From Pisolithus tinctorius (taxonomy: Eukaryota; Basidiomycota; Agaricomycetes; Boletales; Pisolithaceae): DNA of 64,000 bases. Below, piece after piece: positions 3,898-59,400 of the stretch. The stretch spans positions 2,914,001 to 2,978,000 of the forward strand of contig JANFAH010000005.1 in assembly GCA_024663395.1 (NCBI GenBank), read 5' to 3'. Position 1 is the first letter of the stretch. Every line of letters begins with the position of its first letter. The notes beneath the pieces are model-generated. The model made no database searches, was not told the origin of the DNA, and saw nothing but the letters and a program-made list of their open reading frames with translations. Both the position numbers and the translations under genes were made by a program.

Positions 3898-6800
3898 ATG
3901 GCTCTCAAGCAGTTGAAGAAGCTTCGTTTGTTTAGCTCCGAAAGACCCAGCTCGGCCGCACCTGACCTTCCCTCGGTATGCGCCTTATACCTTGCACGCG
4001 ATGGTATATATTGATCTCTGCTCCAACAGTCACAAGGAGCGTCTCATCCCTCTGCCGACGCCTCCTCGATGGCTGGGCCATCGGCGAATACCCCTCGAAA
4101 TCTGTTTTCCAGGATGGGACACCTCTTCCATCGGTCGAACCAGACTCGATCAGAGCCTCCCACTACAGAGACAACCGACGACAGAATTGGCAGTCAAGTC
4201 AATGTTGCACAACAGGCAATGGTTGACATGAAGCCCATCCCCCAAGTATTGCAAATGGCTGTTGGTCTTGTCGGGCAGGCCGATACCGCGGTGACGAGGA
4301 TTCAAAGTATCGAGGCGATTCTCCAACCCCTCAAATTGTTCAACTCCCTTGCTACCACTCTATCGAATGTAGGCGCTTTAAGCTTCCGGTCGCCTGCATG
4401 CTCTGATATAAGTGCACAGGTCCACCCTTATGTCCAGTTTGCACTTGGGATTCTCACCGCTGCTTCTCAAGTACTTTCCCCTTCCCTTTCATGGATCCCT
4501 CGCTCATGTAGTCCTCATTAGTTGCTCATCAACCAAGCAAACCTAGACAACGAGGTGTTCGGCCTCCTCAATACCGTAAAGGATCTCTACGAATTTCTTA
4601 TGGAAAAGGATACCATTGAGAATATGGATGGCATGAAAGAGACGTTGCGGAGGATTTCACAGGAGATGAGTGCCGCAGCGCTGTTTGTCATAAAATATTG
4701 CAAAAAGAAGAACATCTGTGGGTTCTATGGTCATGGTCCTCTGATCCGCTTCAGTGTGCTGATGGGATACATCGCCAGTGGTAAGAATCGGGGACAGCCT
4801 TGTTTCCGACCCGCAGACCGTTGCACGTGGCCACGTCAAGAATCTGGGTGACCTGATGCAACAATATCGGGATCGTGCGATACGGGACATCCAGATCAAC
4901 ATTTCCCACGTGTTTGAAGACCTGAACCTCGAAGGCATGGCTTACGCAGCTGGTGCGGGCCTGAATACGACCAAGAAATGCCTCGACGGCACCAGGACAG
5001 AAATTTTGAAGGATATCATCGACTGGATCACCACAAGTGACGTCAATGCCCCTCGTATCTTGTGGCTCCACGGGCAGCCCGGAAGAGGAAAGTCTGCCAT
5101 TGCCCATACAATTGCATCGTGGATCGAGGATGTGAAAGCGACTGGCACCTGTTTCTGCTTCGCTCGTGACAGGCAGGCCGAACGACGAGAGGAAAAGATT
5201 CTGACTACTATCGCCCGCGATCTGGCGGATCGTGATCCTGCATTTCGACGAGCATTGTCGAATGTGGTGTCAAATAACCACTCTCTCAAGACCACATGCG
5301 ATGTGCTACAGCAGTGGAAGCGATTCATCTTGGAGCCGCTGTCGAAGATTAATGGAGAGATAGTTGGGAATGTGGTCGTGGTAATTGATGCCTTGGATGA
5401 AAGTGGGCCGGAGATATCGAGGAGGGAAATCTTGAGCCTTCTGGTATCATCAGAAGCTGCGCATCTGCCAGCCAATTTCCGGATCCTTTTGACGTCCAGA
5501 CCATTGCCGGACATCGAACGTGTCATGAGGGATGTTCCACACGTGAAGGCAACTTCATTGGACGACGTCCGTCGGGAGTTGGTGGAACGTGACATCCAGC
5601 TATATGTTTCCAAGGGACTTGACCGTTTTCCCAGCATTGGAGCAACAGAAGTCCAGAATGTTGTCAAAAAATCTGATGGCCTGTTTGAGTGGGCTCGTCT
5701 GGCCTGCGAGTTCATCAGGTCACGTAAAGCAGGAGAAACTCCGAAAGAACGCTACGACGATCTGATGGCTCTCCAGTCAGAAAAAGGAAGAACGTTGTTG
5801 GACACGACTTACTTGGAAATCCTGAAGGGGGGCATACCTGATTCTGGGAGAGGCCTGGAACGATATCACTCCGTGATGCGGCAAGTCGTGATGGCGCTTG
5901 AACCTCTTCCTATGGCAGCCTTAAATTCGATGCGTGAAAAATTCCCAAACAAGGAGGACCACTATGACATTTTTCTCGTCCTCGAGTTCATGTCTCCCGT
6001 GCTGGGTGGCATTGTGGACCGCGTCTCTGCTGTGCGGCCCCTGCATGCATCCTTCTATGACTTCCTGATGGATCATTCACGGAGTGGTATCTACTTCGTT
6101 GACACCTCCAACACGCAACATACAAAAGACCTAGCATTTGCTGCATTGCAGGTTCTTCGTGATGGTCTTCAATTCAACATCTGTGGATTGGAAAGCTCCT
6201 ACTTTGCCAATGCTGATGTTGCTGATCTGTTGGACAGAATCAAGAACAACATTCCACAGCCATCTTTGCTACTCTAGTCAATTCTGGGCACAGCATCTGC
6301 AGAAGACAGGATTTGACTTGGAACTTGCATTGCAAGTGAAAGCTTTTGTTGGAAGTGAAAAAATTATGTTCTGGCTGGAGATAATAAGCTTGCTGGGGGT
6401 AGTTGGAAAGGGTTTGGATGCTCTTGCCACTGTTGCAAAATGGCTACATGTGAGTACTTCATGTGCAGTATTTGATGACATCTAACACAACAATGAAGGG
6501 CCAAGATGGCTTCAAGGATACATTGGCATTGGTGGAAGATGGAATCAAGTTGGTTCAGAACTTTGGCAGTGTGATATTGCACAGCACCCCACACATTTAT
6601 ATCTCAGCATTGCCATTTATGCCTCCAAATGCATTGTTATCAACAATGCTCTTGCCAAAATTCTCAGGTTTGGCTGGAGTTGTTGTAGGAGGGTTGAAAG
6701 GGTGGCCAGTTGAACAACAGCTACTGCATGGTCATACTTCTGGGGTCCAATCAGTTGCATTCTCCCCTGATGGGAAGAGGATTGTCTCAGGCTCATGGGA

Positions 6801-8921
6801 CAAGACTGTGAGGGTGTGGGATGTTGAGGGAGGTGTGCAGATTGGCAGCCCTCTTGAGGGCCATACAGATGCAGTCTTTTCAGTTGCATTCTCCCCTGAT
6901 GGGAAGAGGATTGTCTCAGGCTCAAAGGACATGACTGTGAGGGTCTGGGATGTTGAGGGAGGTGTGCAGATTGGCAGCCATCTTGAGGGCCATACAGATG
7001 ATGTCCTTTCAGTTGCATTCTCCCCTGATGGGAAGAGGATTGTCTCAGGCTCAAGGGACAACACTGTGAGGGTCTGGGATGTTGAGGGAGGTGTACAGAT
7101 TGGCAGCCCTCTTGAGGGCCATACAGATGTAGTCCGATCAGTTGCATTCTCCCCTGATGGGAAGAGGATTGTCTCAGGCTCTTTGGACAAGACTGTGAGG
7201 GTGTGGGATGTTGAAGGAGGTGTGCAGATTGGAAGTCCTCTTGGGTGCCATACAGATGGTGTCACTTCAGTTGCATTCTCCCCTGATGGGAAGAGGATTG
7301 TCTCAGGTTCAAAGGACAGCACTATGAGGGTGTGGGATGTTGAGGGAGGTGTGCAGATTGGCAGCCCTCTTGAGGGCCATACTTTTTATGTCACTTCAGT
7401 TGCATTCTCCCCTGATGGGAAGAGGGTTGTCTCAGGCTCAGGGGACAACACTGTGAGGGTCTGGGATGTTGAGGGAGGTGTGCAGATTGGCAACCCTCTT
7501 AAGGGGCATACTTTTTGGTCTATTCAGTTGCATTCTCCCCTGATGGGAAGAGGATTATCTCAGGCTCATTGGACAACACTGTCAGGGTCTGGGATGTTGT
7601 GGGAGGTGTGCAGATTGGCAGTCCTCTTGAGGGCCATACAGATGAAGTCACTTCAGTTGTATTCTCCCCTGATGGAAAGAGGATTGTCTCAGGCTCAAGG
7701 GACAACACTGTGAGGGTCTGGGATGTTGAGGGAGGTGTGCAGATTGGCAGCCCTCTTGAGGGTCATACTTTTTGTGTCAATTCAGTTGCATTCTCCCCTG
7801 ATGGGAAGAGGATTGTCTCAGGCTCATGGGACAAGACTGTGAGGGTCTGGGATGTTGAGGGAGGTGTGCAGATTGGCAGCCCTCTTGAGGGCCATACAGA
7901 TGCAGTCTTTTCAGTAGCATTCTCCTTGATGGGAAGAGGATTGCCTCAGGCTCTTTGGACAAGACTGTGAGGGTGTGGGATGTTGAGGGAGGTGTGCAGA
8001 TTGGCAGCCCTCTTGAGGGCCATACAGATGCAATCACTTCAGCCACATTCTCCCCTGATGGGAAGAGGATTGTCTCAGGCTCTTTGGACAAGACTGTGAG
8101 GGTGTGGGATGTTGAGGGAGGTGTACAGATTGGTAGCCCTCTTGTGGGTCATATAGAAGAAGTCAGTTCAGTTGCATTCTCTGCTGATGGGAAGAGGATT
8201 GTCTCAGGCTCATGGGACAAGACTGTGAGGGTGTGGGATGTTGAGGGAGGTGTGCAGATTGGCAGCTATCTTGAGGGCCATACAGATACAGTCAAATCAG
8301 TGGCATTCTCCCCTGATGGGAAGATGATTGTCTCAGGCTCAGCAGACAAGACTGTGAGGGTGTGGGATGTTGAGGGAGGTGTACAGATTGGCAGCCCTCT
8401 TGAGGGCCATACTTTTTATGTCACTTCAGTTGCATTCTCCCCTGATGGAAAGAGGATTGTCTCAGGCTCATGGGACAAGGCTGTCAGGGTCTGGGAGAAT
8501 GAAAAATTGACACTGGTTGCATCCCACCCCTCTAGCATGCTTCATCCATCCCCTCCTGCACATGGTATGTAACTCCACCTTTTATCTATCCTTATTTCAC
8601 TTAATAAGAAGTGTAGATGTCAAGAGATATCCCATTTGCTTTTCATTTGACCCCTCACATGCACTACATAACAGCAGTCCACTTTTTGATGGGTCCATGC
8701 ACCAGGAGGCTGTGCTGGGCCAAGCAGTCAAGTTACATGATGATGGCTGGATCAGAGGCCCAAAGGGACAACTACTACTTTGGATCCCCCTAAGACTTAG
8801 GAGTCCATTTTACTCAATGTGGACCATAGCAGTCATTCCCAGAGGTTGTTGCACAGAGTTGGACTTGAGTCAGATGGTCCATGGCAAGGAGTGGTGCAAA
8901 TGTTTCCCTTCCATTGAATGA
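3898..8921 (+). CDS. NACHT-WD40 NLR-like gene (14 WD repeats), frameshifted
   Basis: Likely a cytoplasmic STAND/NLR signalling receptor of the fungal incompatibility type. Exons: 3898-3975, 4030-4368, 4420-4470, 4522-4717, 4779-6449, 6499-8564 and 8617-8921, with donors such as GTATGC and GTATGT. ATG 3,898 gives the MALKQLKKLRLF start. Residues 1-220 form a helical N-terminal region. The NACHT domain has a Walker A GQPGRGKSAIAHTI near residue 320 and a Walker B VVVVIDALDES near residue 420, followed by a sensor-like ILLTSRPLPDIERV. A linker (FWAQHLQ...AKWLH) leads to 14 WD repeats, and the last exon carries a conserved tail (DDGWIRGPKGQLLLW ... LDLSQMVHG) seen in mushroom WD40 proteins. Three single-base frameshifts break it: an extra C near 6,260, a lost base near 7,515 and one near 7,925. 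It is therefore a recent pseudogene, a phase-variable allele or a sequence with errors. Confidence 0.85.
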
Positions 8922-14206: not shown

Positions 14207-14913
14207 CTACAAGTACGAATCTGATAAAAGCGAAAATGCATGATGATCGATAAATCTGTTCACGTAGAAGGTGGTAAATGCGTCGTAAGAATGATGCGGC
14301 TTTATGGTTCTGGGAATGGGGTGGGTGCCGTACAAGGGGACGAGGTGTGCCGCACGATATATGGTGTCTACGTGTATGACAGCGGTGGCCGGGTGACGAT
14401 TTGCAGTAAGGGCCGGGCGTACGATCCACATCCCCGTATCCACATCTGGGTCATCCCCGACACGGTCAAACCACTGCACTACTGCGCATGGGTAACGCTT
14501 GCTTTGGGAAACGAAGGAAAAAAACCCAAGGATACGCACGACATCCAAACCATGCATCCCCTTCAGCCCTGGATTAGTATTCACAAATGCACAGTCATAC
14601 CGGGGTGGCCCGTTCTGCCACGAATGACACGAGCGGATATACTCACGCCGCATGCCACCAATACCACTGATATCACTTGGCGCATAGAATAGTGCAGCTG
14701 CAGAATTAACGACGGTGATTTTGTTGCCATAGATGGGGCGCTCAGATAGTGGGATGTCGCAGAGATCGCGGTAGTCTTCAGCGTCGGCTTGTTGAAGCAG
14801 GAACTCCTCCAGAATGGTAGGGAGACGCGATAGACCGAGCTCGATTGCAAGATCTGTCACGGTTCTGGCCCGCTTCATTTCTGAACGCAAGAGGTTGATT
14901 TTGTGAGCCGCTG
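14207..14913 (-). pseudogene. Plavaka transposase, C-terminal part (severed)
   Basis: The minus-strand frame reads into the element from the foldback junction (AAHKINLLRSEMKRARTV) and ends at 14,207. It holds the conserved Plavaka C-terminal region: VVNSAAALFYAPSDISGIGG, RYDCAFVNTNP, CAVVQWFDRVGDDPDVDTGM, then IHVDTIYRAAHLVPLYG and IPRTIKPHHSYDAF. It continues in frame from the right side of the foldback insertion (ARTTRMYLINLSSAAAH near 23,957-24,005) once one copy of the 12-bp duplication is removed. It has no start of its own; the ATG at 14,929 lies in inserted DNA. Confidence 0.85.
14902..14913. repeat. Direct repeat (target duplication) at the left foldback junction
   Basis: TGTGAGCCGCTG, identical to 23,945-23,956. 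Nine to twelve bases may be the true duplication, depending on where the element ends. Confidence 0.85.
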
Positions 14914-14959
14914 ACCCCATGTAGTCCATTTAGTCACAACACATGGGCAGCCTGTGCGC

Positions 14960-16190
14960 CAAAACACCAACACTTATATAGACCCCGAGACGGGCCCGCC
15001 TAAATAGATTAGCCAGTACACATGGACAGGCCCGAGGGACTAAAGTGTGAGCAACATATGTACGGGCCCGTAAGTGCATTACCACAACATATGGGAGGGC
15101 CTGTGGTGGGTAAGGATGTTGAAACATTTAGACGGGCCTGTGACCAATTAAGAATACTGAGCTGCTATAAGATGTGGGCGGGCCTGTCCTGGTAGGTTAC
15201 ACCCCTGTCACAACATCAAGGTGGGCCTGCCTATCATAACATGGAGAGGGTCACAACATAAGGATGGGCCTGGGAGGAATATCATTTATGGTGTTGCAAC
15301 ATATAAATGGGCCCGTTCATCATAAGCCATACCCCTGTCACAACATATGGACGGGCCTGTCAATAGCAAGATGTACTGCTGTTGAAACATAAAGACGGGC
15401 CCGTCATTAATATCATTTAATAGAGTCACAACATAAGGGCGGGCCCTTCAGTAGTATTATTTATATTGTTGCAACATATGGACGGGCCTGTCCACAGTAA
15501 GATGTACCTCTGATGAAACATAAAGACGGGCCCTTCAGTAGTATTATTTATATTGTCACAACATATGGGCGGGCCTGGCCCCAGTAAGATGTACCCTGTC
15601 AAAACATAAAGACGGGCCCGTCATTAATATCATTTAATAGAGTCACAACATAAGGGCGGGCCCTTCAGTAGTATTATTTATATTGTTGCAACATATGGAC
15701 AGGCCTGTCCACAGTAAGATGTACCTCTGATGAAACATAAAGACGGGCCCTTCAGTAGTATTATTTATATTGTCACAACATATGGGTGGGCCTGGCCCCA
15801 GTAAGATGTACCCTGTCAAAACATAAAGACGGGCCCGTCACTAGTATCATTGAATAGAGTCACAACATATGGACGGGCCTGTCCACGGTAAGATGTACCT
15901 CTGACGAAACATGAAGACGGGCCCATCAGTAATCTCATGTATAGCATCACGACATATGGACAGGCCCTTCAGTAGTATAATTTATATTGTCACAACATAT
16001 GGACAGGCCCGTCCACAGTAAGATGTACCTTGGATGAAACATAAAGACGGGCCCATCAGTAATCTCATGTATAGCATCACAACATATGGACGGGCCCTTC
16101 AGTAGTATTATTTATATTATCACAGCATATGGGCAGGCCCAGCCCCAGTAAGATGTACCCTGTTGAAACATAAAGACGGGCCCGTCACTA
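14960..16190. repeat. GGGCCC-centred short repeat array, left arm
   Basis: Imperfect palindromes of the form GACGGGCCCGTC or GGACGGGCCTGTCC recur every 42-47 bases. They are joined by alternating ACAACATATG, GAAACATAAA and CAGTAAGATGTACC words. A higher-order unit of about 180 bp is visible at 15,390-15,840. Confidence 0.9.
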
Positions 16191-18160
16191 ATGGATGTGG
16201 TATCCCTGGCACCCACTGAACAGCGGCTTTCAATGGACACCATGCTGGCATGAATTGGAGATGATTTGAGTGACCCAGATCTCACAAGCTGCAGTCTGGA
16301 TGTATTTGGCATTAATTGGACTATTGCCAGCCATCCGCCCATCCACATTGAGCGGATGTGGCATCCCCAGCACCCCCTCAATATTGGCTTGCCATGGACA
16401 CCATTCTGGCATGGATTGGAGCTAATTTGAGTGACCCAGACCTCACAAGCTGCACCCTTGGGGTATTTAGCATTAATCAGACTATTGCCAGCCATCCGCC
16501 CATCTGTATTGAGTGGATGCAGCATCCCTGGCACCTGCTCAACAGTGGCTTTCCATGGAAACCATTCTGGCATGAATTGGAGCTGATTTGAGTGACCCAG
16601 ACCTCACAAGCTGCACCCTTGGTGTATTTGGCATTAATCACACTATTGCCAGCCATCCGCTCATCTGTATTGAGCGGATGTGGTATCCCCAGCACCCGCT
16701 GAACAGCAGCTTTCCATGGACACCATTCTGGCATGAATCGGAGCTGATTTGAGTGACCCAGACCTCACAAGCTGCACCCTGGATGTATGTCCCATTAATT
16801 AGACTATTGCCAGCCTTCCGCCCATCTGTATTAGGCGGATGAGGTATCCTCAGCACCCGCTTGACAGCGGCTTTCCATGGACACCATTCTGGCAAGCTGC
16901 ACCCAGGATGTATGTCCCATTAATTAGACTATTTCCAGCCTTCCGCCCATCTGTATTGAGCGGATGAGGTATCCTTGGCACCTGCTCAACAGTGGCTTTG
17001 CATGGACACCAGTCTGGCATGAATTGGAGCTGATTTGAGTGACCCAGATCTCACAAGCTGCACCCTTGGTGTATTTGGCATTAATCACACTATTGCCAGC
17101 CTTCCGCTCATCTGTATTGAGCGGATGTGGTATCCCCAGCACCCGCTGAACAGCAGCTTTCCATGGACACCATTCTGGCATGAATCGGAGCTGATTTGAG
17201 TGACCCAGACCTCACAAGCTGCACCCTGGATGTATGTCCCATTAATTAGACTATTGCCAGCCTTCCGCCCATCTGTATTGAGCGGATGAGGTATCCGCAG
17301 CACCCGCTCAACAGCGGCTTTCCATGGACACCAGTCTGGCATGAATCGGAGCTGATTTGAGTGACCCAGACCTCACACGCTGCACCCTGGATGTATGTCC
17401 CATTAATTAGACTATTGCCAGCCTTCCACCCATCTGTATTGAGCGGATGAGGTATCCACAGCACCCGCTCAACAGCGGCTTTCCATGGACACCAGTCTGG
17501 CATGAATCGGAGCTGATTTGAGTGACCCAGACCTCACACGCTGCACCCTGGATGTATGTCCCATTAATTAGACTATTGCCAGCCTTCTGCCCATCTGTAT
17601 TGAGTGGATGAGGTATCCTCAGCACCCGCTCAACAGCGGCTTTCCATGGACACCAGTCTGGCATGAATCGGAGCTGATTTGAGTGACCCAGACCTCACAA
17701 GCTGCACCCTGGATGTATGTCCCATTAATTAGACTATTGCCAGCCTTCCGCCCATCTGTATTGAGCGGATGAGGTATCCTCAGCACCCGCTCAACAGCGG
17801 CTTTCCATGGACACCAGTCGGGCATGAATCAGAGCTGATTTGAGTGACCCAGACCTCACACGCTGCACCCTGGATGTATGTCCCATTAATTAGACTATTG
17901 CCAGCCTTCCACCCATCTGTATTGAGCGGATGAGGTATCCTCAGCACCAGCTCAACAGCAGCTTTCCATGGAAACCATTCTGGCATGAATCAGAGCTGAT
18001 TTGAGCGACCCAGATCTCACAAGCTGCACCCTTGGTGTATTTGGCATTAATCACACTATTGCCAGCCTTCTGCCCATCTGTATTGAGCGGATGTGGTATC
18101 CCCAGCACCCGCTGAACAGCAGCTTTCCATGGACACCATTCCCACATGAATTGCAGCTGA
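16191..18160. repeat. 161-bp tandem repeats, left arm (about 12 units)
   Basis: Unit landmarks at 161-base spacing are CATCTGTATTGAGCGGATG, the hairpin TGAGG-TAT-CCTCA, CAACAGCGGCTTTCCATGG and GAGTGACCCAGACCTCAC. One unit near 16,895-17,020 is shortened to about 125 bases. Two subtypes alternate, one with TGTATGTCCCATTAATTAG and one with TGTATTTGGCATTAATCAC. Confidence 0.92.
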
Positions 18161-19079
18161 TATCCATGACCCAGATCATATCTGCCCACCCCCCCTCATG
18201 CCCTTTGGAGTTTCTCCCCACAAATCCCCACAGTTTATTTTCATCACTCCTCTGAATTTTATGGAATTACATAAGCCACAAAAAGCGCAGCCACTACTCC
18301 CAGAAACATGTCCTCATTTGGCATGTGCCTGATATCCAACATTCCCACACACTGCCCTCATTGTCCCCAGCCTCCCCTTTCTTTCTGCGCTCTGTCCCTT
18401 CACTGTAGGCATTGTATAAGATAGTTACATGTACTATAAGTCCATTAGACCATCAATGAATGCTTTTCTGCCCATCCTAATGGGCCTAAATAATTCCAAT
18501 GTCTGATTGGGGCAAAACCAGAAAAAGCAATTGCTTTTTTGATATATTGGTCATATCTATCTATTTATTGTGTCCCCTTGAAGGGGCCATGTGTCCCTAC
18601 AACATATCACAAGTTGATAGGCTGGGATGGCGTGCTTCAAGTGTAGTAAAACTGGCAATTATCTTAGGGGCTCAAACAAAAAAGTGTTCGCATTTTTGAT
18701 ATATTTGACATGGGCACTTGAAAAAGGAACTAGCTTTGAGGATGGTTCTGTACCTACAACATATCAACGGCTCATTATGTGGGGCAGACACCTTGAGGTG
18801 TTGTGCCATGATCTCTTCCTGCTGGTATCTAGGGGTTTCATCATGTGCTAGGCTGTTTACTGCTATTCTGACTATCTAGGCAGCACTGTAATACTGATTG
18901 GCAGTCACCACAACATTCCCAAGCTCATCCCTTCAGGGGAGAGCACTGGGGAACTGAAACAATCCTCCAGAGAGCGTGGGAAAAGGTGCAAAAAATTACG
19001 GAGACTTTCAAAACATATCAAAAACATGAAATTGCTCACCCCACACAAGGTATGACATCCAATGGATTGTAGTGCTGAG
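18161..19079. repeat. Single-copy inner part of the left foldback arm
   Basis: Reverse complement of 19,298-20,216 with at most a few differences; one G/A difference is seen at the innermost end (AGTGCTGAG versus AGTACTGAG). No supported gene. Confidence 0.88.
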
Positions 19080-19297
19080 ATTTTGTTCATATGATAGGAC
19101 CTCCTGGGACTATATTAGACCCACTTGAGTATAACACAACTCAGAACTTCAGACTTGGTGTTAGTCTCCTACACCTTGAGTAGTCAAATGTATCCATTGA
19201 ATGACAGGTCCTAGTTTATCAATTTTTGCATCTTTGGGTTTGAATGACTGATGAATATAATATGTGACATGTATAAATATCCCATTACCAAGGGACA
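19080..19297. other. Foldback loop (218 bp)
   Basis: Unique AT-rich sequence between the arms, with no inverted partner and no open frame of note. Confidence 0.88.
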
Positions 19298-20216
19298 CTC
19301 AGTACTACAATCCATTGGATGTCATACCTTGTGTGGGGTGAGCAATTTCATGTTTTTGATATGTTTTGAAAGTCTCCGTAATTTTTTGCACCTTTTCCCA
19401 CGCTCTCTGGAGGATTGTTTCAGTTCCCCAGTGCTCTCCCCTGAAGGGATGAGCTTGGGAATGTTGTGGTGACTGCCAATCAGTATTACAGTGCTGCCTA
19501 GATAGTCAGAATAGCAGTAAACAGCCTAGCACATGATGAAACCCCTAGATACCAGCAGGAAGAGATCATGGCACAACACCTCAAGGTGTCTGCCCCACAT
19601 AATGAGCCGTTGATATGTTGTAGGTACAGAACCATCCTCAAAGCTAGTTCCTTTTTCAAGTGCCCATGTCAAATATATCAAAAATGCGAACACTTTTTTG
19701 TTTGAGCCCCTAAGATAATTGCCAGTTTTACTACACTTGAAGCACGCCATCCCAGCCTATCAACTTGTGATATGTTGTAGGGACACATGGCCCCTTCAAG
19801 GGGACACAATAAATAGATAGATATGACCAATATATCAAAAAAGCAATTGCTTTTTCTGGTTTTGCCCCAATCAGACATTGGAATTATTTAGGCCCATTAG
19901 GATGGGCAGAAAAGCATTCATTGATGGTCTAATGGACTTATAGTACATGTAACTATCTTATACAATGCCTACAGTGAAGGGACAGAGCGCAGAAAGAAAG
20001 GGGAGGCTGGGGACAATGAGGGCAGTGTGTGGGAATGTTGGATATCAGGCACATGCCAAATGAGGACATGTTTCTGGGAGTAGTGGCTGCGCTTTTTGTG
20101 GCTTATGTAATTCCATAAAATTCAGAGGAGTGATGAAAATAAACTGTGGGGATTTGTGGGGAGAAACTCCAAAGGGCATGAGGGGGGGTGGGCAGATATG
20201 ATCTGGGTCATGGATA
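19298..20216. repeat. Single-copy inner part of the right foldback arm
   Basis: Mirror of 18,161-19,079. Confidence 0.88.
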
Positions 20217-22670
20217 TCAGCTGCAATTCATGTGGGAATGGTGTCCATGGAAAGCTGCTGTTCAGCGGGTGCTGGGGATACCACATCCGCTCAATACAGA
20301 TGGGCAGAAGGCTGGCAATAGTGTGATTAATGCCAAATACACCAAGGGTGCAGCTTGTGAGATCTGGGTCGCTCAAATCAGCTCTGATTCATGCCAGAAT
20401 GGTTTCCATGGAAAGCTGCTGTTGAGCTGGTGCTGAGGATACCTCATCCGCTCAATACAGATGGGTGGAAGGCTGGCAATAGTCTAATTAATGGGACATA
20501 CATCCAGGGTGCAGCGTGTGAGGTCTGGGTCACTCAAATCAGCTCTGATTCATGCCCGACTGGTGTCCATGGAAAGCCGCTGTTGAGCGGGTGCTGAGGA
20601 TACCTCATCCGCTCAATACAGATGGGCGGAAGGCTGGCAATAGTCTAATTAATGGGACATACATCCAGGGTGCAGCTTGTGAGGTCTGGGTCACTCAAAT
20701 CAGCTCCGATTCATGCCAGACTGGTGTCCATGGAAAGCCGCTGTTGAGCGGGTGCTGAGGATACCTCATCCACTCAATACAGATGGGCAGAAGGCTGGCA
20801 ATAGTCTAATTAATGGGACATACATCCAGGGTGCAGCGTGTGAGGTCTGGGTCACTCAAATCAGCTCCGATTCATGCCAGACTGGTGTCCATGGAAAGCC
20901 GCTGTTGAGCGGGTGCTGTGGATACCTCATCCGCTCAATACAGATGGGTGGAAGGCTGGCAATAGTCTAATTAATGGGACATACATCCAGGGTGCAGCGT
21001 GTGAGGTCTGGGTCACTCAAATCAGCTCCGATTCATGCCAGACTGGTGTCCATGGAAAGCCGCTGTTGAGCGGGTGCTGAGGATACCTCATCCGCTCAAT
21101 ACAGATGGGCGGAAGGCTGGCAATAGTCTAATTAATGGGACATACATCCATGGTGCAGCGTGTGAGGTCTGGGTCACTCAAATCAGCTCCGATTCATGCC
21201 AGACTGGTGTCCATGCAAAGCCGCTGTTGAGCGGGTGCTGAGGATACCTCATCCGCTCAATACAGATGGGCGGAAGGCTGGCAATAGTCTAATTAATGGG
21301 ACATACATCCAGGGTGCAGCTTGTGAGGTCTGGGTCACTCAAATCAGCTCCGATTCATGCCAGAATGGTGTCCATGGAAAGCTGCTGTTCAGCGGGTGCT
21401 GGGGATACCACATCCGCTCAATACAGATGAGCGGAAGGCTGGCAATAGTGTGATTAATGCCAAATACACCAAGGGTGCAGCTTGTGAGATCTGGGTCACT
21501 CAAATCAGCTCTAATTCATGGCAGACTGGTGTCCATGCAAAGCTGCTGTTGAGCGGGTGCTGAGGATACCTCATCCGCTCAATACAGATGGGCGGAAGGC
21601 TGGCAATAGTCTAATTAATGGGACATACATCCAGGGTGCAGCTTGTGAGGTCTGGGTCACTCAAATCAGCTCCGATTCATGCCAGAATGGTGTCCATGGA
21701 AAGCTGCTGTTCAGCGGGTGCTGGGGATACCACATCCGCTCAATACAGATGAGCGGAAGGCTGGCAATAGTGTGATTAATGCCAAATACACCAAGGGTGC
21801 AGCTTGTGAGATCTGGGTCACTCAAATCAGCTCCAATTCATGCCAGACTGGTGTCCATGCAAAGCCACTGTTGAGCAGGTGCCAAGGATACCTCATCCGC
21901 TCAATACAGATGGGCGGAAGGCTGGAAATAGTCTAATTAATGGGACATACATCCTGGGTGCAGCTTGCCAGAATGGTGTCCATGGAAAGCCGCTGTCAAG
22001 CGGGTGCTGAGGATACCTCATCCGCCTAATACAGATGGGCGGAAGGCTGGCAATAGTCTAATTAATGGGACATACATCCAGGGTGCAGCTTGTGAGGTCT
22101 GGGTCACTCAAATCAGCTCCGATTCATGCCAGAATGGTGTCCATGGAAAGCTGCTGTTCAGCGGGTGCTGGGGATACCACATCCGCTCAATACAGATGAG
22201 CGGATGGCTGGCAATAGTGTGATTAATGCCAAATACACCAAGGGTGCAGCTTGTGAGGTCTGGGTCACTCAAATCAGCTCCAATTCATGCCAGAATGGTT
22301 TCCATGGAAAGCCACTGTTGAGCAGGTGCCAGGGATGCTGCATCCACTCAATACAGATGGGCGGATGGCTGGCAATAGTCTGATTAATGCTAAATACCCC
22401 AAGGGTGCAGCTTGTGAGGTCTGGGTCACTCAAATTAGCTCCAATCCATGCCAGAATGGTGTCCATGGCAAGCCAATATTGAGGGGGTGCTGGGGATGCC
22501 ACATCCGCTCAATGTGGATGGGCGGATGGCTGGCAATAGTCCAATTAATGCCAAATACATCCAGACTGCAGCTTGTGAGATCTGGGTCACTCAAATCATC
22601 TCCAATTCATGCCAGCATGGTGTCCATTGAAAGCCGCTGTTCAGTGGGTGCCAGGGATACCACATCCATT
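20217..22670. repeat. 161-bp tandem repeats, right arm (about 15 units)
   Basis: Mirror of the left array plus three extra units, which lie at about 21,196-21,679 when the two arms are paired from both ends. The extra block contains one TGTATTTGGCATTAATCAC-type unit repeated at 322-base spacing, as expected from duplication of a multi-unit block. Confidence 0.92.
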
Positions 22671-23900
22671 AGTGATGGGCCCGTCTTTATGTTTCAACAG
22701 GGTACATCTTACTGGGGCTGGGCCTGCCCATATGCTGTGATAATATAAATAATACTACTGAAGGGCCCGTCCATATGTTGTGATGCTATACATGAGATTA
22801 CTGATGGGCCCGTCTTTATGTTTCATCCAAGGTACATCTTACTGTGGACGGGCCTGTCCATATGTTGTGACAATATAAATTATACTACTGAAGGGCCTGT
22901 CCATATGTCGTGATGCTATACATGAGATTACTGATGGGCCCGTCTTCATGTTTCGTCAGAGGTACATCTTACCGTGGACAGGCCCGTCCATATGTTGTGA
23001 CTCTATTCAATGATACTAGTGACGGGCCCGTCTTTATGTTTTGACAGGGTACATCTTACTGGGGCCAGGCCCACCCATATGTTGTGACAATATAAATAAT
23101 ACTACTGAAGGGCCCGTCTTTATGTTTCATCAGAGGTACATCTTACTGTGGACAGGCCTGTCCATATGTTGCAACAATATAAATAATACTACTGAAGGGC
23201 CCGCCCTTATGTTGTGACTCTATTAAATGATATTAATGACGGGCCCGTCTTTATGTTTTGACAGGGTACATCTTACTGGGGCCAGGCCCGCCCATATGTT
23301 GTGACAATATAAATAATACTACTGAAGGGCCCGTCTTTATGTTTCATCAGAGGTACATCTTACTGTGGACAGGCCCGTCCATATGTTGCAACAATATAAA
23401 TAATACTACTGAAGGGCCCGCCCTTATGTTGTGACTCTATTAAATGATATTAATGACGGGCCCGTCTTTATGTTTCAACAGCAGTACATCTTGCTATTGA
23501 CAGGCCCGTCCATATGTTGTGACAGGGGTATGGCTTATGATGAACGGGCCCATTTATATGTTGCAACACCATAAATGATATTCCTCCCAGGCCCATCCTT
23601 ATGTTGTGACCCTCTCCATGTTATGATAGGCAGGCCCACCTTGATGTTGTGACAGGGGTGTAACCTACCAGGACAGGCCCGCCCACATCTTATAGCAGCT
23701 CAGTATTCTTAATTGGTCACAGGCCCGTCTAAATGTTTCAACATCCTTACCCACCACAGGCCCTCCCATATGTTGTGGTAATGCACTTACGGGCCCGTAC
23801 ATATGTTGCTCACACTTTAGTCCCTCGGGCCTGTCCATGTGTACTGGCTAATCTATTTAGGCGGGCCCGTCTCGGGGTCTATATAAGTGTTGGTGTTTTG
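22671..23900. repeat. GGGCCC-centred short repeat array, right arm
   Basis: Mirror of 14,960-16,190, with the same unit order wherever compared. Confidence 0.9.
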
Positions 23901-23944
23901 GCGCACAGGCTGCCCATGTGTTGTGACTAAGTGTGACTACACTA

Positions 23945-23956
23945 TGTGAGCCGCTG
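23945..23956. repeat. Direct repeat (target duplication) at the right foldback junction
   Basis: TGTGAGCCGCTG, second copy; on the transposase strand it encodes the AAH shared by both severed ends. Confidence 0.85.
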
Positions 23957-26640
23957 CACTACTCAGGTTAATAAGGTACATACGGGTGGTGCGAGCGAGT
24001 TCAACATGCGCCTCTATGGATGTTGGGCAGTCCACAGCCTCACCATTGTCTTCGTTACGGGGACCGGAACCTAGGACCTGTGATGTACCGCCGTTCTCTC
24101 TGCCATCTGTTTACTTCATGTGAATATGATGAAAATCAATATGATCGTCCAATGACTGACCTTGAGTCGAAAGGAGCTGCATAGTTGCCGTGAGGCAGTT
24201 TCCCTCTAGCATCCCTCGTTCGTTGAAATCCCTTCGAGAGGCCGCCAACTTATCTAAGCGCTGATTGATAATGAGCATTTGGCCCAGTGGCTTGTTACGA
24301 TTGGTCCGCCGGTACGGGTCCTTCACAGCATCGATATGCTTTGATTCGGTGATTGATGTGCAAAGTCCGTTCGGCGCCCCAAATAAACGTATAAGATCAG
24401 GGTAGTGTTTCATCGCATGCTGGCGCGGTAAGGAAAAAGTTTGAATGGTACCCGATTGGCGAAATATTTCCCGGTACTTGTGAAAGCGGTCGATGGTATC
24501 TTGAACTGCAACCAAGGTTTCTTCAGTGAGGACATTGCGACGGACCAGGTATGTGAACTCCAACAAAGCGCGAAATGTTCGCACAATCTCCATTGGTACA
24601 TGCCCCTCAATGGCGGGTAGATACACCTATGTATCGAACGTTAACGACAGACTGTATAAACAACCTGATCTAAAATTACCTTCATTAGTGCCTTTGAGTC
24701 GTTACCAGTCCACTGTTTGAAATGACGGCCCTCGGGAAAGCGACGGAGCCCTGCGAAAGGCGCGACGGCCGCGATTCTAAGGTATCCTACATGAGGAAAG
24801 AAAGAAACGTAAATTAAAGCAGACGTACCTCCGGTCAATATCATCTAAGATCGCATTCGCCTTTGTTGTGCCATGCACGGTCTTCAAATAGCTTTCAACC
24901 CACTCGACCAAATGATCCTTGAACGTCCCTTTGATGATCTGGTGTAGTATATCAGGGGCGATGAGTTGGTATATATCGGCACGGGGAAAACTGCTGGTGA
25001 ACGGCTGAAATCGGTTTTCAGGACACAGGCACAGTGGAATCTAAGTGAAACAATACTTACAATTGTATCACCCACAATGCCATACGCATCCCGTAAGGTC
25101 TTGAGATCAAACTCCTCGATCAGCGCTTCTGCATGTTCGCGACTCCGATAAAGTGCATCAGTATCGAGTTCCTGCCTCATCGCAAGACATCTGAGATTCT
25201 AGTTAGTTGATAGTAAGAGTTGGAAAGTAGAAAAACATACTTCGCACACCACCCTCGCACAATACATGCCAGAAGGACTTGTTCCTCATAATCGGCGATA
25301 TAAGGGCCGAGTCCAAAAATTACGCGGCGATAGTGTCCATCACCGAACTGCATAACAGTTGGTTTGGTCATCGCAGGCTTGAGATTTCGAAGGATATATG
25401 CGAGTGACGAATGAAAGAGTTGGCGGCGGAATTGTCGGAACGTGTCGGTGGGCGCATGCTCTTTGTCGGCTACAAGTATATCTCTCATTAGCGCCATTAC
25501 TTTCCTATGTATCTATCAGATGCACTTACTATGTGGGATTGCAAGGAAAGCGATGAGAGCGACACTATTGCGATGTGCACGACGAACTTTGTTGCTCATG
25601 TTACCTATTGAGAGGTAGAGGGGATAATAATCGTTTTGACCGGTTGCGACTGACACGGTCGTCTTGTCACTGCCAAGGATGATTGGAACGAAGGTTGACC
25701 CGTGCGTGGTTGAATCACGAGAAATTATGTCCTGTTATTTGCACGCCATTAGTACAGCGCTCAGAGACATAGAAGATAAAAGACGCACCGCTTGAGTCCA
25801 CGCCCAATCACCAGACATGAAATCCTCCCACTGTCTCTTGTCCGTCGCACTCTCATATTCCCGAAACGGCCGGTAATCCATGTCTCTCGAAAAATCAGGT
25901 CGGGAAAGCATATCGCGAATAACGTCTTTAGGGTCCCGGAACCAAATATCGTACGCGGCGTTCATCCATGATGGGACATTATCAGTTGGTCGTTCGCCGG
26001 TATAGGATATGCAAAAATTCTCCCACTGTACATCACCAAGTATAGTGCGATCGATCGTCTTGTACATTTCGGCGCTATCTTTGAAGACGGGCTGGCTGCC
26101 AGCGCCGAGAAGTGTCGCATTCCAGAGATCTAGTAACTCGTTAATATTGGCTGCAGACATCTGGCTGCGGGTGAACAGGAAGTCAGCTAGCTCGAACTCC
26201 AGACGACTGGAGTATGGCGACCAATCGTTAGGTTGCTTTTCAGAAGGAGTTTGCGGGGACGACTGTCCAACTGGGAGGGGGTTTCCAGACGAATCACAAG
26301 GCTGCCCTGTCAAATAATACATCGGTAAATACTTAATTTTTCACCCATACTGCGTACCGGTGAGGTTTGGGTGATAGTTCCGATAATACTTGTCGCCTTG
26401 TCCAACAAACTCTGCCAGAAGGGTTGGATTCGAAGGGCTTGTGGATGGGTCACTATAGTCGTCGTCGTCCGGTCGGAACTGGAATTGTTCCTCTTCAGGC
26501 GATGGTACCTGATCTGGCTGTTCTACCTGCGCGGGGATGTTGATAGGCGGAAATACTGGGTGGTATACGTTGACGTGCTGGGTTAGGCCCGACTTGTTTC
26601 TGAACCATCGACGGCAGCCAGGTTTCGTGCAGGGAATCAT
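23957..26640 (-). pseudogene. Plavaka transposase, N-terminal and catalytic part (severed)
   Basis: Multi-exon minus-strand gene from ATG 26,640. It opens with a C2H2 zinc finger (CTKPGC, 12 residues, HVNVYH), then an acidic Pro-rich linker. The next exon (26,322 down to about 25,740) contains PSWMNAAYDIWFRDPKDVI and YRPFREYESATDKRQWEDFM. Later exons contain FVPIILGSDKTTVSVATGQ, whose Asp is the likely first catalytic residue of the DDE-type core. They also contain PTVMQFGDGHYRRVIFGLGP, APDILHQIIKGTFKDHLVEW and SITESKHIDAVKDPYRR. The coding text runs to the foldback junction as IEAHVELARTTR. Exons are separated by short introns. Apart from the insertion I see no stop inside these exons, so the gene may have been functional when it was hit. 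Confidence 0.85.
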
Positions 26641-56411: not shown

Positions 56412-59400
56412 ATGACGATCCCCAGGAAAAAAAAGAAAACATACCATGTGTACTGCGAAACCTTTGATGAAAGCGGGCGTGCTTTCTCTCGCACAGTTCG
56501 ATTTTCTGACGACTACCGCCGCCTTGTCACTACTCACGACCCACCTATCCGACTTCGGACTACACCGAATGGACCTGCGGACAGCTTTATGGAGGCCTCA
56601 GACGATTGGGGGAATGAGGACAACTATTGGGATGGAGATGCCTATGGTGTTGCACCCAGCAGATCCGTGCAGCGAACTCAGATCTTGGTAAGTTTTTTTT
56701 TGAACTGATAAGACCTCGACCGACCTTTTATGGGACAGGATGACCCGTTCAAGGAGTGGGCAGGGTTCAATGGTGAAGAATACGGTTATCGCGAGGAGTA
56801 TCTCTTTGAAGAACTCCGGCTTGAGAGCCGCGGCGATGCTGCCAAATGGTGTAGTTGCGAGGTGGCTAGTGGAATGCCAAACGAACGACTCTTTCGTTGC
56901 GAAGATTGTCATGGGGTCACATTGTCGTGTCAGACCTGTTGTCTAGCAACTCATCAACGTTTACCGTTACACAAAATCAAGGTGAGCTCGTCCAGTTTAT
57001 AATACATCCCACCCTTCATAAATCATTCGCAGAAGTGGAACGGAAAGTTCTTTGAGCATGTCACCTTAAAGCAGCTTGGCCTCATAGTTCAGCTCGGTCA
57101 TGAAGACATGTTTTGCTACTGTCCGGAGCGCGGTCATTTAGATTTCGTCGTCGTCGATGTCAACGGCATTCACCCCGTTAATGTGAATTTCTGTGGCTGT
57201 GAGCAGCGCGTGTCCCATCACCAACAGCTTCTGCGATGTGGTTGGTATCCTGCCACCATCTGTAATCCAAGGACAGCTTGCACCAGAACAGTCTTGGATC
57301 ACTTTCTGCGACTCACATGGTCAAGTAAAGTTTCGGCGTATGAATACTATCGCACGCTGGAGCGTCTTACAGATAATACAGGTATTAATATGCCGAAGGT
57401 ATGTGGTATGGGCCCTTAGTCTAGTCCCCGCTGATGTGCGTCTCAGAGTCGGTATCATCCCTTTTTGCGCATGGTTCGTCAGTTCCGCCACACGAAACTC
57501 CTCAAAAGAGCAGGGAGGGCAAGCGAGCAAGATGGTATTCGTACCACCAAACCTGGTGGGCTCGCTGTGTTGTGTCCTGCATGCCCACAACCGGGCATGA
57601 ACTTGCCTGATGATTGGAAAGATGCAGAGCCCTCTAAAAAGTTCGTTGGACATATTGGGCACTACACATATTCTAATCAAGGCCTTAGGTTTCTTTATTC
57701 GCTCATCATTGCGATAGATGCCAACTTTCGGCTCAAGAACCGTGCACGTGCGTCTGACCAGGATCCAGGCCTGCATACCGGCCTTGCCTACTTTGTTGCC
57801 GATGGCCCTTACAATGAGCACGTACTTCGGTTTGCTACGCAAGAAGATGTGCGTCTGCATGTAATATGTTTTTGATTTCCCGCCCTTGACTCTCGATTTA
57901 GATTAGCACGTGTAACAGTTTCAGGTCTATGGCTCACGCTGAAACCAAGTTCGCAACTGGTCTTCGTACAACGGGTGTAGGACTATGCCTTTGTGCCCGA
58001 CATGAATTTGTATGCCCTTGTGGCGTGGGCGATTTGCAAAAAGGCGAGCGGTAAGTACACATCTACACACCTTCCAGTCGCATCCGTTCATAAATTCCCA
58101 GCTACTGTAACATGGACTATATATTTTTTTCGGCTATTTTCCCCTTTCTGCTCCTTTCCATGGTCATTTCCTACGACATCGCCTGTCAATGGAAACTCAA
58201 CCTTGCCCGAAGGATAGACCAGCTCCCCGAACATCTACGTCTCCCCCTCGCCGTCGTCGCATCGTCGTTTGTGTTCGGTATTCCGAAGTTCCATGCCCCT
58301 GCTCATTCTGCCTCATGTGCTATACCCCATTCTCTCAATCTTCTGCCTGGTGTTGGCCGCACTGATGGCGAAGGGGTCGAGCGTAACTGGTCGGAGATCA
58401 ATCGTGTCGCAAATAGCACAAAAGAAATGACACCCGGCGCGAGGCATGATACCATCGACGACCACTTCGGCCATCACAACTTCAGAAAGCTTGTTGGTCT
58501 CGGTAAGCACGAATCTTGTGGGATGGTGTACTGTACTAACAGCGGTGAAGGATGTTTACTTCGTGACAGGCTCAAAGCTGCCACTGCTGAGCGATCTCGT
58601 CATTGCGCTACCCTGGAGGAATTTAACACATCTATTGGCGCTTCACAGAGGGAGACATGGACCGCTATGATCACCGCATGGGAAGCTGATAAATCCAAAC
58701 CGAATCCATATGCCACCACTCAGTGTTGTACGTATTCCTGTTCCTTGCGTTATGTACATTGGGTCACCAGATGTGATTGCAGTTCCAACCGAGGCTGAGG
58801 TTCGCTCCCAGCTGGCCGCTGATGACAAGGCTGCGGCTGCTCGTGGGGAATTCAGCCGCCATAAAATGTCCCCAAGCAGCTTTGTTTCTTTCGGGTTGGC
58901 AATTGAAGAAACTCAGTACGTGATTTTCCTTCAGGCCTAGACAGATGAGCCTAGATTCAATGCCAGGCGAAGTCTGAAGTCAGACGTATCGGCTGAATTA
59001 CGGCTTACGGTGACTCAAGACACAAGTTTACAACGACGTCGTGCTGCGCTCTTCCGTCAAATCCGACAGTTTCGCGAAATTCAAGTGGTTTACATGATTG
59101 GCATCGAGAGTATTGTTCAACGGTCCGAAGATCCTGAAGCCGAAGCCAAAGCCATCCGCTTGTGCATGCCATCGGAGTTGTCTCCAGCTGAGCGGATGTC
59201 TATCTCTGACGACATTTCTGTCATTGAAGCGCAACTTAGAGAGGCGCAATGTCGTGATGCCCTTGGCAAGCTTCGAAACTACCTACATACGCAGACTCAT
59301 TTCATCAAATATCGAAACACGAACATCCGTGGCCAAAGGGCAAATACTCACGCAAAGACACTGATAAGCACACTCTCCTCAAAGATTGGCAGAGTCGTAC

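What the first reader, a model, noticed from the sequence alone, without database searches (positions are those of the whole stretch)
14914..23944. A 9-kb fungal foldback element with modular 4-kb inverted arms
The sequence shows two near-identical inverted arms (14,930-19,079 and 19,298-23,930) around a 218-bp loop. Each arm is built in three layers: short GGGCCC repeats, 161-bp tandem repeats and single-copy DNA. There is no evident transposase. Drosophila Foldback elements have long, internally repetitive inverted repeats and make 9-bp duplications; I know of no agaricomycete element described with this layout. If transcribed, the RNA would fold into a hairpin over 4 kb long and could feed dsRNA/siRNA silencing (inference).
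Basis: partly seen in the sequence, partly recalled or inferred. Interest (0 to 1): 0.9.

Follow-up and report, generated by a model that had tools for sequence, protein, structure and literature searches.

The report
Giant hairpin transposon borrowing TET-transposon ends
A mushroom-forming fungus carries a scattered family of hairpin-shaped parasitic DNA elements, roughly 6-12 kb long, whose ends match large mobile elements that carry a DNA-demethylation-type enzyme and whose centre comes from a second transposon, showing how transposon pieces are recombined into new mobile parasites.

Summary
Window 14,913-23,948 is a palindrome with ~98% identical inverted arms around a 218-bp loop. It is a transposed element, not an assembly fold: it sits between 7-bp direct repeats (AGCCGCT, not 9-12 bp), interrupts a multicopy ORF whose uninterrupted site exists at 11 other loci, and I found 10 further two-ended copies. 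Of 10 copies with readable flanks, 8 have exact 7-bp duplications and 2 have one mismatch.
It is not an orphan Foldback. Its two distinct tips also bound ~18-kb elements in the same genome. The one read in full (18,311 bp, 7-bp duplication) matches KDZ transposase and TET/JBP dioxygenase, so it is a Kyakuja-type transposon. Both arms derive from that element's right end; the left end keeps only 18-30 bp of left-type sequence, with the same switch in 11 of 11 copies, implying a single origin. The U+loop core comes from a second family with TAYGG..CCRTA ends and 6-bp duplications. Loop inversions and matched arm arrays indicate arm-arm recombination. Best reading: a chimeric non-autonomous foldback moved in trans by TET-encoding Kyakuja-type transposons (inferred from shared ends). 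Hairpin-RNA silencing is untested. Closest named protein relatives suggest Pisolithus.

The parts
14906..14912 (.). left target-site duplication AGCCGCT
   Evidence: with the element and one duplication left out, the interrupted ORF is open
23949..23955 (.). right target-site duplication AGCCGCT
14913..23948 (.). whole foldback element, 9,036 bp
14913..14940 (+). L terminus (GACCCCATGTAGTCCATTTAGTCACAAC); left-type up to alignment column 18, right-type from column 31
   Evidence: 68 exact sites of its first 19 bp genome-wide
23920..23948 (-). R terminus (CACATAGTGTAGTCACACTTAGTCACAAC when read inward)
   Evidence: 85 exact sites of its first 18 bp genome-wide
14941..15335 (+). rest of left outer module T; right-type subterminal sequence of the Kyakuja-type element
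15336..16192 (+). left GGGCCC-rich subterminal repeat array (G)
16193..18175 (+). left 161-bp tandem array (M), about 12.3 units
18176..19079 (+). left U module, related to the second (TAYGG-ended) transposon family
19080..19297 (.). loop, 218 bp; orientation relative to the ends opposite to the window's in 6 of the 9 two-ended copies that have it
19298..20201 (-). right U module
20202..22667 (-). right 161-bp tandem array (M), about 15.3 units
22668..23524 (-). right GGGCCC-rich subterminal array (G)
23525..23919 (-). rest of right outer module T
14210..14912 (-). left piece of the ORF interrupted by the insertion (286 codons across the empty site)
23956..24110 (-). right piece of the interrupted ORF

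Best explanation
It is a non-autonomous, chimeric foldback transposon, moved in trans by TET/JBP-encoding Kyakuja-type (KDZ) transposons in the same genome. Shown: left and right tips shared with ~18-kb elements, one of which, read in full, matches KDZ transposase and TET/JBP dioxygenase; 7-bp duplications for both; right-end origin of both arms; one common L/R switch in 11 of 11 copies; a core related to a second transposon family; both loop orientations; partial likeness of mate arms. Inferred: (1) the right end, with an already palindromic core from the second family, was copied back in inverted orientation and joined within ~30 bp of the left tip at a short shared motif (TTAGTCACAACA), as template switching during gap repair after excision would do; (2) the Kyakuja-type transposase recognises the retained left tip plus the right-type subterminal repeats and cuts and pastes the whole palindrome; (3) arm-arm recombination inverts the loop and resizes both tandem arrays together.
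For: Dispersed copies: 40 strong matches (92-100%) to the 407-bp end, only the best 40 of 265 candidates scored; some near 92% may be right ends of autonomous elements. The copies with both ends seen have one L and one R end each; 8 of 10 readable flank pairs have exact 7-bp duplications, 2 have one mismatch. Partner E1 = C1:603,706-622,016, 18,311 bp, duplication GACCTCA, with Tet_JBP 1.1e-15, CxC2 3.4e-24 and KDZ 1.3e-16. With all 150 Tet_JBP matches, 31 of the 68 exact L sites have one within 12 kb inward on the same strand, against 0 inward on the opposite strand and 1 outward on each strand; 44 of 68 have a converging R site within 60 kb, against 4 diverging; 9 of 9 non-foldback pairs at 17.5-19.5 kb contain Tet_JBP. 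E2 (TAAAATA) and a 1.2-kb element with both tips (CTGAGAA) also have 7-bp duplications. The window's ends are 92-95% identical to R ends of E1/E2 and 78-82% to their L ends; 11 of 11 L ends switch between columns 18 and 31. The published Kyakuja duplication is 7 bp (PMC12730594, section 3.2, read). Empty site: a joined 344-bp query matches 11 loci without a break (10 over all 344 bases, 1 over 342), 4 at 100%. Core source: 14,538-bp element B, duplication GAGCGC, whose inverted subterminal arms contain U and, near its right end, 93 bp of the loop. Loop: 3 two-ended copies as in the window (itself included), 6 opposite. 161-bp arrays equal in both arms in 4 of 10 copies; permutation p 0.0015 for all 10.
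Against: No transposition assay; transposase specificity is inferred from shared tips. One end lacks the 5'-CA..TG-3' rule given for Kyakuja (it ends ..GGGGTC), and I built no transposase tree. 37 of 68 L sites have no Tet_JBP hit within 12 kb (10 of these are the foldbacks themselves; most others were not examined), and one examined site (L030) shares only the first 22 bp. Homogenisation is incomplete: in T the mate arm is nearest both ways in 6 of 11 copies (one by a tie), C2a half, C12, C18, C2b and C2c not; in U in 4 of 8. Spearman for array lengths is 0.62, p 0.054. C2a was left out of the array count because its arrays are broken by gaps. Origin of the 161-bp repeats is unknown.
Confidence: 0.85

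Rival explanations
1. Natural silencing trigger: transcription through the element gives a ~4-kb hairpin RNA whose siRNAs direct methylation of the TET-encoding Kyakuja-type elements, as proposed for maize Mu killer.
For: Arms contain the partner's right subterminal region, with 199 and 202 exact 21-mers shared with E1 and E2 right ends. The element is CpG-depleted (o/e 0.34, loop 0.00) against 0.85 in the rest of the window, as expected of long-methylated DNA. Mu killer is a comparable inverted duplication (PMC3440606, abstract and passages).
Against: No RNA data. Arms hold no transposase coding sequence, unlike Mu killer. CpG loss is explained by methylation of any repeat. E2 ends are not CpG-depleted (0.85-0.89). 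Passages of PMC3440606 themselves dispute the read-through origin of Mu killer's antisense RNA.
Confidence: 0.1
2. True Foldback-like family (Drosophila FB or Galileo kin) with its own lost transposase.
For: Same overall architecture: long, internally repetitive arms with repeat-number changes. Galileo is described with 7-bp duplications (PMC3573991 passages).
Confidence: 0.04
3. Assembly artefact: one arm duplicated as a false fold.
For: Foldback artefacts in long reads are known (PMC12870357, seen as a search listing only).
Against: Duplication of AGCCGCT; unbroken empty-site paralogues; 11 two-ended copies at different sites, asymmetric tips, own duplications in those readable; arms that differ by whole repeat units.
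Confidence: 0.01

Closest known systems
TET+ Kyakuja DNA transposons of Agaricomycetes (Kojima 2025, PMC12730594)
   Same: 7-bp target duplications; 5'-CA at one end; the partner matches KDZ transposase and TET/JBP dioxygenase
   Different: The foldback has no genes, long inverted arms and a foreign core; the other end is not TG; the two Laccaria families described there have no TIRs
Galileo (P superfamily) and Drosophila Foldback elements
   Same: Long inverted arms with internal tandem repeats whose number varies; Galileo 7-bp duplications; Galileo copies made only of TIRs
   Different: Different transposase superfamily; in Galileo F the two TIRs vary independently (PMC3573991 discussion passage), here 4 of 10 copies have equal arrays; here a two-family chimera
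Mu killer (maize)
   Same: Inverted duplication of an autonomous element's end region, capable in principle of a ~4-kb hairpin RNA
   Different: A single locus with transposase coding sequence and a reported silencing effect; here a dispersed mobile family without coding sequence and without RNA data
IS3EU (6-bp duplications, TAYGG..CCRTA; PMC12730594 section 3.1.3, seen as a passage)
   Same: End motif and 6-bp duplications of the second family that supplies the core
   Different: The one full-length member read here (B) contains a KDZ domain (2e-45); whether that is its own transposase or a nested element is unsettled

Membership tests
Kyakuja (KDZ superfamily), as non-autonomous derivative | 7-bp target-site duplication | tested here: met
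   8 of 10 readable foldback copies exact, 2 with one mismatch; E1 GACCTCA, E2 TAAAATA
Kyakuja (KDZ superfamily), as non-autonomous derivative | termini shared with an element encoding KDZ transposase | tested here: met
   E1: KDZ 1.3e-16, CxC2 3.4e-24 between the same L and R tips; only E1 was read in full
Kyakuja (KDZ superfamily), as non-autonomous derivative | TET/JBP gene in the partner | tested here: met
   Tet_JBP 1.1e-15 in E1; 31 of 68 L sites have a hit inward within 12 kb, controls 0, 1 and 1
Kyakuja (KDZ superfamily), as non-autonomous derivative | 5'-CA..TG-3' termini | tested here: inconclusive
   R end begins CACATAG (met); L end gives ..CATGGGGTC-3' (not TG); the rule is stated for two Laccaria families
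Kyakuja (KDZ superfamily), as non-autonomous derivative | transposase falls in the Kyakuja clade rather than Dileera or Zisupton | not tested
   no transposase tree was built
Drosophila Foldback (FB) | 9-bp target duplications (recalled) | tested here: not met
   7 bp
Drosophila Foldback (FB) | long inverted arms with internal direct repeats | tested here: met
Galileo (P superfamily) | P-type transposase in the autonomous partner | tested here: not met
   the partner carries KDZ
Mu killer-like silencing locus | hairpin transcript and siRNAs that silence the autonomous element | not testable with these tools
   no RNA or methylation data are held
IS3EU (for the second family that gave the core) | TAYGG..CCRTA ends and 6-bp duplications | tested here: met
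   exact 6-bp duplications in L028, L037, L039, L042 (not L038) and B
IS3EU (for the second family that gave the core) | IS3EU transposase in the autonomous member | tested here: inconclusive
   B gave a KDZ match and no other transposase match among 8 frames scanned

The most novel reading that the evidence does not exclude
Palindromic cores are recombination-prone modules that swap ends between transposon families: the same U-loop-U hairpin is mobile with TAYGG..CCRTA ends (6-bp duplications) and with Kyakuja-type ends (7-bp duplications), so a gene-less parasite can change the transposase it exploits and keep its core.
Probability: 0.3. Interest if true: 0.75.

Novelty: new variant of a known kind. 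Interest (0 to 1): 0.58.

Why it matters
TET-encoding transposons are thought to counter host methylation; in my searches nothing described what parasitises them. Here a family of giant foldbacks uses their tips, keeps only 18-30 bp of one end and duplicates the other. That is a natural minimal-end experiment for a little-studied transposase superfamily, and shows how palindromic elements can form, stay partly symmetric and recruit parts from two transposon families. The foldbacks also allow a direct test of whether natural long hairpins trigger silencing in mushrooms.

Tried and rejected
Internal transposase in larger copies: the 5-10-kb inserts in C12, C20, C58 and C26 copies hold Gypsy- or Copia-like polyproteins (my reading of the ORFs; no family scan), so I take them as later LTR-retrotransposon insertions. 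A longer 11-12-bp duplication, suggested by GTGAGCCGCTG around the window copy, was rejected by comparison of copies: the extra letters are element ends. IS3EU for the second family was my first reading from its ends; a KDZ domain inside B leaves it open. Other TAYGG ends (97 sites within 3 mismatches, control 0) gave a mixed picture by eye against the capped list: C6/C108 and C18:28532 have a KDZ hit a few kb inward, the pairs C1:1050851/1067707 and C13:1370104/1384442 have none listed. A third context of the core (L036, L043) has no clear ends or duplication. The source of the 161-bp repeats was not found in E1, B or seven other stretches. Pfam on the two pieces of the interrupted ORF gave nothing; I read it as a Plavaka-type transposase from recall only. 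L041 (6.1-kb pair with both tips) has no TET hit and was not followed.
Full report
What is there. The inverted structure is as described: arms of four modules, here called T (outer 423 bp), G (GGGCCC-rich repeats), M (161-bp tandem repeats) and U (904 bp, single copy), around a 218-bp loop. In the window the arms differ by 1 base in U, by none over 388 compared columns of T (the first 35 columns, with the distinct tips, left out), by 1 base in G and by 3 units of M. The longest frames wholly inside are 163 aa, one per arm, without a Pfam match.

Boundaries and target duplications. I compared the ends of copies across the unnamed 92.5-Mb genome. The copies with both ends seen have one end beginning GACCCCATGTAGTCC (L) and one beginning CACATAGTGTAGTCAC (R), both read inward. 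Ten had both flanks available: 8 have exact 7-bp duplications, and C1 and C20 have one mismatch. An eleventh two-ended copy (C2d) was fetched without flanks. In the window the duplication is AGCCGCT. With the element and one duplication left out, the flanks form one open frame of 286 codons. The 344-bp empty site is found unbroken at 11 loci (10 over all 344 bases, 1 over 342), 4 of them identical; the other 4 of 15 matches are the two pieces at the window and two pieces on C2. So this is a transposition into a multicopy gene, not an assembly fold.

The autonomous partner. The first 19 bp of L occur exactly at 68 sites and the first 18 bp of R at 85 (with mismatches 131 against 47 for the reversed control, and 122 against 19). 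Of the 68 L sites, 44 have a converging R site within 60 kb against 4 with a diverging one; 10 pairs span 17.5-19.5 kb, one of them the C12 foldback with an insert, and the other 9 of 9 contain a Tet_JBP match 2.4-3.0 kb from the L tip. I read one such element, E1, in full: C1:603,706-622,016, 18,311 bp, duplication GACCTCA. Open frames in it match Tet_JBP (1.1e-15), CxC2 (3.4e-24) and the KDZ transposase (1.3e-16). Over all 150 Tet_JBP matches, 31 of the 68 L sites have one within 12 kb inward on the same strand, 24 of them within 3.4 kb; controls are 0 inward on the opposite strand and 1 outward on each strand. TET-encoding Kyakuja elements of mushrooms are reported to make 7-bp duplications (PMC12730594; abstract, sections 3.2 and 4.2 read, other parts as passages). 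The best relative of the CxC2 protein is from Pisolithus tinctorius (94% identity over 70% of the query), so the genome is probably a Pisolithus; that is an inference.

How the foldback is built. The autonomous element's two ends are related but distinct. At 37 columns that tell them apart, the 11 foldback L ends are left-type up to column 18 (C20 has one exception, at column 7) and right-type from column 31 on, with a few scattered exceptions. The foldback therefore arose once, most simply by an inverted copy of the right end that replaced all but the tip of the left end. The switch lies in a motif shared by both ends. The window's first 320 bp are 92-95% identical to right ends of E1 and E2 and 78-82% to their left ends.

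The core. U and loop occur with quite different outer sequences in a second family, with ends TAYGGAAAGCC and exact 6-bp duplications in 4 of 5 foldbacks with both ends seen (L028 GTTTTC, L039 TAGTAG, L042 TATGGG; L037 CTGAGT; L038 none). A 14,538-bp element B with these ends (duplication GAGCGC) carries U (87-92% identical) in its inverted subterminal arms, and near its right end a small hairpin that includes 93 bp of the loop. So the window element is a chimera: Kyakuja-type outer arms, second-family core. B contains a KDZ domain (2e-45) and a weak C48 peptidase match (22.6 bits, cut-off 20.7), while its ends and duplications match the published IS3EU description; which superfamily it belongs to is open.

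Dynamics. Loop orientation relative to the ends is as in the window in 3 of the 9 two-ended copies that have a loop (W, C1, C20) and opposite in 6 (C2b, C2c, C2d, C6, C12, C58) (read), as recombination between inverted arms would give. M array length varies from 892 to about 3,480 bp among copies. It is equal in both arms in 4 of 10 (C2b, C6 to within 2 bp, C12, C20), differs by whole units in 4 (W 3, C1 2, C2c 2, C2d 4) and not by whole units in C58 (3.1) and C18 (6.7); permutation p 0.0015, Spearman 0.62 with p 0.054 (lengths read, C2a left out). In T the mate arm is the nearest sequence both ways in 6 of 11 copies (one by a tie), in U in 4 of 8. Homogenisation is therefore partial. CpG is depleted in the foldbacks (window copy 0.34, six others 0.12-0.34) and nearly gone in the 1.2-kb element (0.05), against 0.85 in the rest of the window, 0.51 in E1, 0.85-0.89 in E2 ends and 0.95 in B: a methylation-decay signature, not proof of RNA-directed silencing.

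Literature. Searches for KDZ names (11 of 11 listed), foldback with Basidiomycota (20 of 134), foldback with concerted evolution (20 of 25), KDZ with non-autonomous (20 of 110) and Pisolithus with Kyakuja (20 of 49) listed no foldback of KDZ or of a mushroom by title or abstract start. PMC12730594 holds the word foldback 0 times and hairpin 0 times. From PMC12810828, PMC3573991, PMC3440606, PMC9757828 and PMC10066745 I saw passages only. Cryptococcus KDZ1-3 have TIRs of 139-241 bp and 4-8-bp duplications.

Verdict. A real non-autonomous chimeric foldback, most likely moved by TET-encoding Kyakuja-type transposons; the identical empty sites and near-identical arms suggest a recent insertion (inference). 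The architecture is known from other superfamilies; the partner, the right-end duplication and the two-family chimera are new as far as my searches show.

Noticed in passing
window 57905-58480: Another KDZ transposase match (172.7 bits) with two in-frame TAA, outside the finding.
   Followed up: no
window 6745-8496: 129-bp tandem array of 13.6 units, 88% matches; looks like coding WD40-type repeats by eye (label recalled).
   Followed up: no
G000, e.g. C7:1581098-1581116 and C12:1004886-1004904: A second tip variant GACCCCATGTAGTCAGCTT (14 sites in the capped list); several have Tet_JBP hits a few kb inward by eye: perhaps a sister family.
   Followed up: partly
L033 (C2:712350-713900): 1.2-kb element with both Kyakuja-type tips and a CTGAGAA duplication, CpG o/e 0.05: a miniature non-autonomous relative.
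   Followed up: partly
L030 (C1:717200-722250): Shares only the first 22 bp with the foldback L end; no converging R site within 60 kb.
   Followed up: no
C162/C22, C130/C26, C41/C80, C6/C108: Several contig pairs carry matches with the same or near-identical scores, suggesting retained haplotypes or segmental duplication; copy counts may be inflated.
   Followed up: no
L028 2109-2446 and 4925-5439: The two outer arms of one TAYGG-ended foldback differ sharply in CpG content (o/e 0.00 and 1.09), so decay seems to have hit one arm only.
   Followed up: no
L047+L048 (C1:3913217-3927754): 14.5-kb element with TAYGG..CCRTA ends, 6-bp duplication, a KDZ domain, a weak Ulp1/C48 peptidase match and a 916-aa frame with 4 hits, all from Pisolithus.
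   Followed up: partly
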